Assembly (NCBI GenBank): GCA_021792255.1
Contig: JAJYUZ010000001.1
Span: 310,001 to 374,000, forward strand
Origin: Thermoplasmata archaeon
GTDB taxonomy: Archaea; Thermoplasmatota; Thermoplasmata; Thermoplasmatales; GCA-001856825
Direction: 5' to 3'
Length of the DNA: 64,000 nucleotides
In this document: positions 44,560 to 53,555 of the stretch, piece after piece
Position numbering within the stretch: the stretch's first letter is position 1
How the letters are laid out: each line of letters opens with the position of its first letter
The notes under the pieces: model-generated
The model's database searches: none
What the model was told of the DNA's origin: nothing
What the model saw: the letters and a program-made list of their open reading frames with translations, nothing else
Position numbers and translations under genes: made by a program

Positions 44560-44862
44560 ACTGGTAGTCCCAGGATGGCCGTCGCCAGATATGGTGAGGA
44601 AAGTCCTCCCTCCGGGTAGCAATCTGGATAAAACCCTGGTCGAGAGACCAGCTCTTCCTCAAAAGAAATGACACAGTTTCGGTCAAGGGTGAACCTTTAG
44701 AAGGGGACGTTCCCGAAAACTTGATGAGACAGAGGGGGTGAGATAGGAGCAAGCTCAAGCAGTTCTCATGACAGCTATCAGAGGAACAGGTAGAGCGCAA
44801 TAGTCAAATGCCATCAACCCGAAAGGGCTAACAGAAGGAGGCTTACTCGGGACAACCTCTAC
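44560..44862 (+). ncRNA. rnpB: Archaeal RNase P RNA
   Basis: CR-I-like GGTGAGGAAAGTCCTCCC and CR-V-like ACAGAAGGAGGCTTACTC (P4), GGTAGAGCGCAA core, terminal P1 pairing ggtagtccc (44563-44571) / gggacaacc (44849-44857). Confidence 0.9.
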
Positions 44863-52363: not shown

Positions 52364-53278
52364 GTGAATCAGACAATCCTGTTTTATGGAGATGAGGAGA
52401 TTCTGAAGAGTCTCTCTAAGAGGGGCTCAGAAACCGATATAAGATATTACAACACCAGGATTTCGGGAAACGAAATGACTTTCCTCTACCCCTTCAAATT
52501 CCCCGAGAGGATCCAAACGCTCTTGAACGCTGCATCGGTATCCAACAAGGCAATTTTGGCTGTTAACGAACTTGATAAGAGCGTAGGAGAGTTTTTGCTA
52601 ACGCTGGATTACCACCAGATTAGGAATTTGGGTGTAATATCTGATCCCAATTTAACCGAACAAATTCAGAAGATTGCCACAGGCATGGGAATAAAGGTAC
52701 ACGCGCTTAACCCGAAGTACGAAGACATTGAAAAATTTTCACAGGTACCGCTGGAGGACCCAAAAGCTGAAAACTTGGTGGTACTGGATCAGAGCTTTCA
52801 AGTCAAAGGTGTAGGTACGGTTAGTCTCGGATTCGTGCTTGGCGGTGAGATAAAGAAACACATGGTATTGAAAGCTTATCCATCAGGTAAATCTGTCGAC
52901 ATAAAGAGCATACAAATTATGGATGTGGACATGGAAACTGCAACCCCTTTTTCTAGAGTAGGACTGGCATATAGGAACGCTGAAGTCGATGATGTTCCAA
53001 AAGGTACTTTGCTCTATTCCAGAGAGGGAATAGAATTTACTGATAGCATAACACTTGAAGTCAGGACTAATCCGACCGTTAAGGTGGTTCCTTCGGTAGG
53101 AGACAAGATACAAATTAACTTCCTTTTCAACAACATTAATGCGGAAATCTCTGACATCTCGGAGGGGCGATACCTAATTGATGCGGACAAGAAAGTCCCA
53201 ATTATGGACTCAATCTTCTCAATATCCTCTCTCAACTCTAGCCCAAGGGTGGTAGGAGCTGGGAAACCTGGAAATTGA
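52364..53278 (+). CDS. SelB-like elongation factor paralog with degenerate G domain
   Basis: 304 aa; no P-loop; domain II-like FQVKGVGTVSLGFVLGGEIKKHMVLKAYPSGKSVDIKSIQIMDVDM. Confidence 0.75.
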   Translation: MNQTILFYGDEEILKSLSKRGSETDIRYYNTRISGNEMTFLYPFKFPERIQTLLNAASVSNKAILAVNELDKSVGEFLLTLDYHQIRNLGVISDPNLTEQIQKIATGMGIKVHALNPKYEDIEKFSQVPLEDPKAENLVVLDQSFQVKGVGTVSLGFVLGGEIKKHMVLKAYPSGKSVDIKSIQIMDVDMETATPFSRVGLAYRNAEVDDVPKGTLLYSREGIEFTDSITLEVRTNPTVKVVPSVGDKIQINFLFNNINAEISDISEGRYLIDADKKVPIMDSIFSISSLNSSPRVVGAGKPGN

Positions 53279-53495
53279 AACCAAACTGAAGGTTAAAGGA
53301 AAAGAAGCAGAAATCATCATTCGAGCGGTACTTGAGGATCACAAGAAGTATATGAATTGCAGGAAGACAAAGGAGGGATACCTCTGCACCATTAGGGGTC
53401 AAACCAATGATGTCCGGAAGACGCTCAATGAATTTCTAGAATCCATCTTATACCTGGAGAGAGTGTCAGAAAGCCTCGAAGCCCGAGTGGGGTAG
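53256..53495 (+). CDS. Pcc1-like (KEOPS subunit-like) small protein; start codon unresolved
   Basis: Open frame ELGNLEIETKLKVKGKEAEIIIRAVLEDHKKYMNCRKTKEGYLCTIRGQTNDVRKTLNEFLESILYLERVSESLEARVG*; TLNEFLESIL resembles the Pcc1 C-terminal helix; not in the supplied ORF track. Confidence 0.5.
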   Translation, partial: ELGNLEIETKLKVKGKEAEIIIRAVLEDHKKYMNCRKTKEGYLCTIRGQTNDVRKTLNEFLESILYLERVSESLEARVG

Positions 53496-53555
53496 TTTGG
53501 ATTATCCTAGAGGCCTGCGGAGCCTCAGACCTGGGTTCGAATCCCAGCTCGGGCG
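53481..53555 (+). tRNA. tRNA-Arg (anticodon GCG)
   Basis: GCCCGAG...GAGGCCTGCGGAGCCTC...CTGGGTTCGAATCCCAGCTCGGGCG; anticodon loop CTGCGGA. Confidence 0.93.

What the first reader, a model, noticed from the sequence alone, without database searches (positions are those of the whole stretch)
53256..53495. Pcc1-like ORF with no canonical start, overlapping SelB-like stop and ending inside tRNA-Arg
An ORF missing from the track encodes about 72-79 aa with a Pcc1/KEOPS-like C-terminus (RKTLNEFLESILYLERV). No ATG/GTG/TTG lies in frame between the upstream TAG (53253) and an internal ATG about 75 nt into the conserved part, so translation needs CTG/ATT initiation or a +1 shift from the SelB-like gene (stop 53276-53278). 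Its own TAG (53493-53495) lies within tRNA-Arg(GCG), giving a 15-bp CDS/tRNA overlap.
Basis: partly seen in the sequence, partly recalled or inferred. Interest (0 to 1): 0.65.

Follow-up and report, generated by a model that had tools for sequence, protein, structure and literature searches.

The report
Archaeal KEOPS gene starting with CTG
A small archaeal gene for a subunit of the tRNA-modifying KEOPS complex (a Pcc2 protein, the only Pcc1-family protein detectable in this archaeal family) appears to be translated from a CTG codon instead of the usual ATG, GTG or TTG, from inside the end of its upstream neighbour, which explains why gene finders miss it.

Summary
The ORF is real. It lies directly behind the same SelB-like gene in 14 of 15 genomes held of this Thermoplasmatales family; the 15th is only 52% complete. 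It evolves as protein: all 66 third codon positions vary within the genus, and dN is far below a saturated dS. No ATG, GTG or TTG precedes it in ten genomes of the genus, so a local indel is excluded.

The likely start is CTG 53268-53270. It is CTG in 12 genomes and TTG in two, one of which has an in-frame TAA immediately before that TTG. A Shine-Dalgarno AGGAG (53254-53258), matching this genome's 16S 3' end, lies 9 nt upstream. Of 70 fourfold-degenerate SelB codons, the only three with an invariant third base lie in this initiation region (p = 7e-5).

The protein belongs to the Pcc2 branch of the Pcc1/Pcc2 family (tree split 100/100; predicted fold β-α-β-β-α, best structural match the Pcc1-Pcc2 complex). 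Its usual D/E-D/E signature reads N-E. No canonical Pcc1 was found in any of these genomes, although Kae1 and Cgi121 are present in those tested. The stop inside tRNA-Arg is the tRNA's own U13-A14-G15.

Translation from CTG is inferred, not measured. A frameshift is disfavoured.

The parts
52364..53278 (+). Upstream gene: SelB-like (aSelBL-type) protein, 304 aa, GTG start, ends TGA 53276-53278
   Evidence: TIGR00475 selB 4e-12 and EF-Tu domain 2 at 9.4e-07; same neighbour in all 14 family genomes that hold the ORF
53254..53258 (+). Shine-Dalgarno-like AGGAG, 9 nt before CTG 53268, lying inside the SelB-like gene
   Evidence: Complement of CTCCT at this genome's 16S 3' end; AGGAG in 9 and AGGGG in 1 of 10 genus members although two of its bases are third positions of SelB codons
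53268..53270 (+). Probable start codon CTG
   Evidence: CTG in 12 genomes, TTG in 2; TAA directly before the TTG in G012; third base of the overlapping SelB codon invariant in 14 of 14; beta strand 1 begins at residue 2
53268..53495 (+). Pcc2-type KEOPS subunit gene, 75 aa plus stop TAG 53493-53495, overlapping the upstream gene by 11 nt
   Evidence: Conserved frame and purifying selection; Pcc2 clade; predicted Pcc1/Pcc2 fold
53481..53555 (+). tRNA-Arg(GCG); its bases 13-15 (TAG) supply the stop codon, 15-nt overlap
   Evidence: ARAGORN and Rfam; same tRNA behind the ORF in relatives

Best explanation
53268-53495 encodes a 75-aa Pcc2-type subunit of KEOPS, the archaeal tRNA t6A synthase complex. 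Shown by sequence: it is a conserved protein gene locked behind a SelB-like gene and before tRNA-Arg(GCG), its reading frame has no ATG/GTG/TTG start in the whole genus, and the initiation region (AGGAG, spacer, CTG) is under selection beyond the SelB code. Inferred: ribosomes that translate and terminate on the SelB-like gene (TGA 53276-53278), or that bind AGGAG afresh, begin the second protein with initiator Met-tRNA at CTG 53268, 8 nt upstream of that stop. A C is kept in the first position because it is also the second base of a Pro or Ala codon (CCT, GCT) of the SelB-like protein; the more distant genus g3 has Ile (ATT) there and has TTG. Also inferred: since no canonical Pcc1 is detectable in the family, this protein fills the Pcc1 place on Kae1. 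The stop inside the tRNA is a by-product of the conserved tRNA bases U13-A14-G15.
For: Orthologues in 14 of 15 family genomes with the same junction. Purifying selection with saturated synonymous sites. Codon 53268 is CTG in 12, TTG in 2, with a stop immediately before the TTG in G012, so translation cannot start further upstream there. SelB third-base conservation is confined to the initiation region: 3 of 70 fourfold columns invariant, all among the last four, p = 7e-5. 16S 3' end GGATCACCTCCT pairs with AGGAG, spacing 9 nt. Of 44 other conserved frames examined in the window, 39 have an ATG (29), GTG (6) or TTG (4) start shared with relatives; four of the other five have a canonical codon within the first six codons of the frame, and the fifth (44804) opens inside RNase P RNA. 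Pcc2 identity: profile match to the Pcc2 set E 2e-11, probability 97%, against E 1.8e-4, probability 48%, to the Pcc1 set; tree split 100/100; the Pcc2 set matches solved Pcc1 and Pcc2 chains at 1e-12 to 9e-6; predicted fold beta-alpha-beta-beta-alpha, pLDDT 86, best PDB match 7a67 Pcc1-Pcc2. Kae1 in a 524-aa frame and Cgi121 present, no Pcc1 found.
Against: No ribosome profiling or protein data. CTG 53259 and ATT 53274 are also invariant in the genus. Two of the three invariant SelB third bases (53260, 53263) lie in the spacer, which a start at 53268 does not by itself explain. No single-sequence family model reaches its cut-off for this protein and the fold match is weak (E 0.013). The family signature D/E-D/E reads N-E.
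Confidence: 0.75

Rival explanations
1. Same protein, but initiation at CTG 53259 (TTG in genera g2 and g4), giving three more residues.
For: YTG in all 14 genomes; TTG in G011 and G013; explains the invariant third bases at 53260 and 53263.
Against: AGGAG directly abuts this codon, so it cannot serve as its Shine-Dalgarno; no conserved alternative is seen further upstream; in G012 the frame hits TAA two codons later.
Confidence: 0.1
2. Programmed +1 frameshift at the end of the SelB-like gene makes a SelB-Pcc2 fusion.
For: The SelB frame is one base away and the C-terminal SelB codons have invariant third bases.
Against: In g3 the SelB stop lies 6 nt later, its last codons differ and a TTG stands at the start position; G012 has TAA in the ORF frame just before it; no stable RNA structure around the junction in this genome, z = +1.1.
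Confidence: 0.05
3. Initiation at ATT 53274, overlapping the SelB stop as ATTGA.
For: ATT in 12 genomes, ATA in 2; ATT is named as a possible rare start in such overlaps (PMC10666635).
Against: 15 nt from AGGAG, too far for a usual Shine-Dalgarno; cuts off the start of beta strand 1; g3 has ATA here but a regular TTG at 53268.
Confidence: 0.05
4. Sequencing or assembly error hides a normal start.
For: The relatives with public titles are metagenome-assembled genomes.
Against: The same junction without ATG/GTG/TTG in ten separately assembled genomes of the genus at 66-75% protein identity.
Confidence: 0.01

Closest known systems
Pcc2, fifth subunit of archaeal KEOPS (Daugeron et al. 2023, PMC9889334)
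   Same: Pcc1-family fold and size; branches with the Pcc2-type paralogues of neighbouring families f3 and f4. The paper also reports pcc2 genes missed by automatic annotation.
   Different: Signature reads N-E instead of D/E-D/E; no canonical Pcc1 found beside it; CTG start; behind a SelB-like gene.
Canonical Pcc1 (PF09341, NF011470)
   Same: Same fold; N at the first signature position.
   Different: No 'REIPRT'-type motif, outside the Pcc1 clade; not beside prefoldin beta, where Pcc1 lies in families f4 and f6.
Termination-reinitiation at overlapping archaeal gene pairs (Huber et al. 2019 and 2023, PMC6728339, PMC10666635)
   Same: Short overlap of co-directed genes, with the second start just upstream of the first stop.
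   Different: 11-nt overlap and CTG instead of ATG/GTG; coupling here is inferred, not shown.
aSelBL, archaeal SelB-like proteins (Atkinson et al. 2011, PMC3037878)
   Same: The upstream gene; aSelBL is reported in Thermoplasmatales, with a diverged GTPase function.
   Different: The pairing with Pcc2 and tRNA-Arg was found only in family f1; SelB-like genes of families f3 and f6 have other neighbours.

Membership tests
Pcc2 (archaeal KEOPS) | Groups with Pcc2-type paralogues and not with Pcc1 | tested here: met
   Tree split 100/100; hhalign E 2e-11 to the Pcc2 set against 1.8e-4 to the Pcc1 set. The comparison Pcc2 set is from this order; it matches solved Pcc1 and Pcc2 chains.
Pcc2 (archaeal KEOPS) | D/E-D/E in helix 2 where Pcc1 has N-S/T (PMC9889334) | tested here: inconclusive
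   N-E in 14 of 14: second position Pcc2-like, first Pcc1-like. One f3 member of the Pcc2 set reads N-D.
Pcc1/Pcc2 superfamily | beta-alpha-beta-beta-alpha fold of about 75-90 residues | tested here: met
   Predicted E2-9 H14-25 E29-34 E37-45 H46-74, pLDDT 86; top PDB match 7a67, probability 1.00 but E 0.013.
Canonical Pcc1 (PF09341) | Score above the curated cut-off | tested here: not met
   No hit for the window protein; best of 14 members E 0.0082.
KEOPS subunit | Other KEOPS subunits in the genome | tested here: met
   TsaD/Kae1 1.1e-69 in a 524-aa frame and Cgi121 1.3e-10 in G000; the same in five other family genomes tested.
KEOPS subunit | Physical binding to Kae1 or Pcc1 and role in t6A synthesis | not testable with these tools
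   Needs biochemistry.
CTG-initiated gene | Direct evidence of the N-terminus | not testable with these tools
   No proteomics or Ribo-seq.

The most novel reading that the evidence does not exclude
A whole archaeal family has lost canonical Pcc1 and runs KEOPS with one Pcc2-derived protein carrying a hybrid N-E signature. Its gene is translated from an evolutionarily fixed CTG start held in place by the code of the overlapping SelB-like gene and coupled to that gene's translation.
Probability: 0.45. Interest if true: 0.65.

Novelty: new variant of a known kind. Interest (0 to 1): 0.5.

Why it matters
A conserved CTG start with a comparative record of CTG-to-TTG exchange would be a clear natural case of near-cognate initiation in archaea; two searches of the held papers showed no archaeal case by title or abstract, though such searches are limited. 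It shows how overlap with a neighbouring gene can pin a non-standard start codon. If Pcc1 is truly absent, this family tests whether a Pcc2-type protein alone can support t6A synthesis, since in Pyrococcus a KEOPS with Pcc2 in place of Pcc1 was inactive (PMC9889334). Practically, gene finders limited to ATG/GTG/TTG miss this gene.

Tried and rejected
Indel error: rejected by ten genomes of the genus. Internal ATG 53352 as start: not conserved and would remove β1 and α1. Membership in canonical Pcc1: rejected by tree, profile and neighbourhood. Family models alone: no hit above cut-off; the RecX hit (0.0015 to 0.0093, far below its cut-off) and the Botulinum neurotoxin PDB hits (E about 0.5) are chance. 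Order-wide conservation of the SelB-Pcc2 pair: not found outside family f1. Pcc1 beside prefoldin beta in f1: absent. Other candidates for a start without ATG/GTG/TTG in the window: 44804 is the 3' end of RNase P RNA; 20461 and 62699 have GTG/ATG starts shared with relatives. RNA structure at the junction of this genome: none beyond shuffles.

Full report
What is there. The frame 53256-53495 is open and lacks ATG, GTG and TTG until ATG 53352. Upstream is a 304-aa SelB-like gene (52364-53278; SelB model 4e-12, EF-Tu domain 2 at 9.4e-07). Downstream is tRNA-Arg(GCG) at 53481-53555. The window lies in a 1.59-Mb, 93.6% complete genome; public relatives are titled Thermoplasmata or Thermoplasmatales archaeon.

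It is a gene. The ORF was found in 14 of 15 genomes of the family (the exception is 52% complete), always behind the same SelB-like gene. Within the genus all 66 third codon positions differ somewhere among ten genomes, against 32 first and 29 second positions, and dS is saturated for most pairs while dN is mostly 0.14-0.31.

Where it starts. Codon 53268 is CTG in all genomes of genera g1, g2 and g4 that hold the gene (12) and TTG in both g3 genomes; G012 has TAA just before the TTG, which excludes an upstream start there. AGGAG at 53254-53258 is complementary to CTCCT at this genome's 16S 3' end (GGATCACCTCCT), 9 nt before CTG 53268, 0 nt before CTG 53259 and 15 nt before ATT 53274. The overlapping SelB code gives a clean test: of 71 fourfold-degenerate SelB codons, four have an invariant third base in ten genomes. 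One is the SelB start codon itself; the other three are at 53258, 53261 and 53267. The chance that all three fall among the last four of 70 is 7e-5 (the genomes are related, so this is a guide, not an exact probability). So the initiation region is under selection beyond the SelB protein. Two of those bases lie in the spacer; a start at 53268 does not by itself explain them, and I hold 10% for a start at 53259.

Why CTG and not ATG or TTG (inference). The first base of the start codon is the second base of a SelB codon: Pro CCT in most, Ala GCT in G013, Ile ATT in g3. Only in g3 is it T, giving TTG. In the window no other conserved protein gene was found that lacks an ATG/GTG/TTG near the beginning of its frame, so this is not a general habit of the genome.

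What it encodes. Single-sequence family models are below cut-off. Profiles and trees settle it: two Pcc1-family paralogues exist in families f3 and f4, a canonical one (beside prefoldin beta in f4 and f6) and a second one. The present protein aligns with the second (E 2e-11 against 1.8e-4 for the first) and branches with it at 100/100 support. The second set matches solved Pcc1 and Pcc2 chains and carries mostly D-D where Pcc1 has N-S, the signature published for Pcc2 (PMC9889334). The present family reads N-E, invariant in 14 sequences. The predicted model is β-α-β-β-α with β1 starting at residue 2; the best solved match is the Pcc1-Pcc2 complex 7a67, E 0.013, followed mostly by KH domains.

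Is canonical Pcc1 gone? Neither PF09341 nor a profile of the order's own Pcc1 proteins (positive controls 1e-23 to 1e-30) finds a credible Pcc1 in any family genome searched, and prefoldin beta has no Pcc1 before it in the nine family genomes where it was found. Kae1 and Cgi121 are present in the six family genomes tested. Incomplete genomes and strong divergence remain possible. Family f6 mostly shows the opposite, Pcc1 without a detectable second paralogue, with exceptions G041 and G055.

The tRNA overlap. The stop TAG is tRNA bases 13-15. G005, G006 and G007 end with TAA directly before the tRNA, and G012 and G014 end well upstream. The overlap is therefore not a conserved device. If the transcript runs through the tRNA, RNase P cleavage would remove the stop codon; whether the tRNA has its own promoter was not tested.

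Verdict. Observation confirmed; interpretation right in kind, corrected to Pcc2 and to a start at CTG 53268. Initiation, coupling and the sole-Pcc role are inferences awaiting experiment.

Noticed in passing
window 44563-44857 +: Archaeal RNase P RNA (RF00373, 158 bits); its 3' end mimics a conserved ORF without a start codon at 44804.
   Followed up: yes
window 52364-53278 +: The SelB-like protein matches only elongation-factor domain 2 and the following part; no GTP-binding domain model was hit, so its GTPase part looks strongly diverged.
   Followed up: no
window 53447-53454 +: CTTATACC about 27-34 nt before the tRNA-Arg, inside the Pcc2 gene, resembles an archaeal TATA box; it is not kept in G002, G005, G006 or G007.
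   Followed up: partly
L041, L049, L055, L056: In families f4 and f6 canonical Pcc1 lies directly before prefoldin beta; this arrangement is absent in the window's family.
   Followed up: partly
L049 3151-4295, L053 1060-2219: In family f4 the Pcc2-type gene also overlaps the end of its upstream gene, by about 50-60 nt.
   Followed up: no
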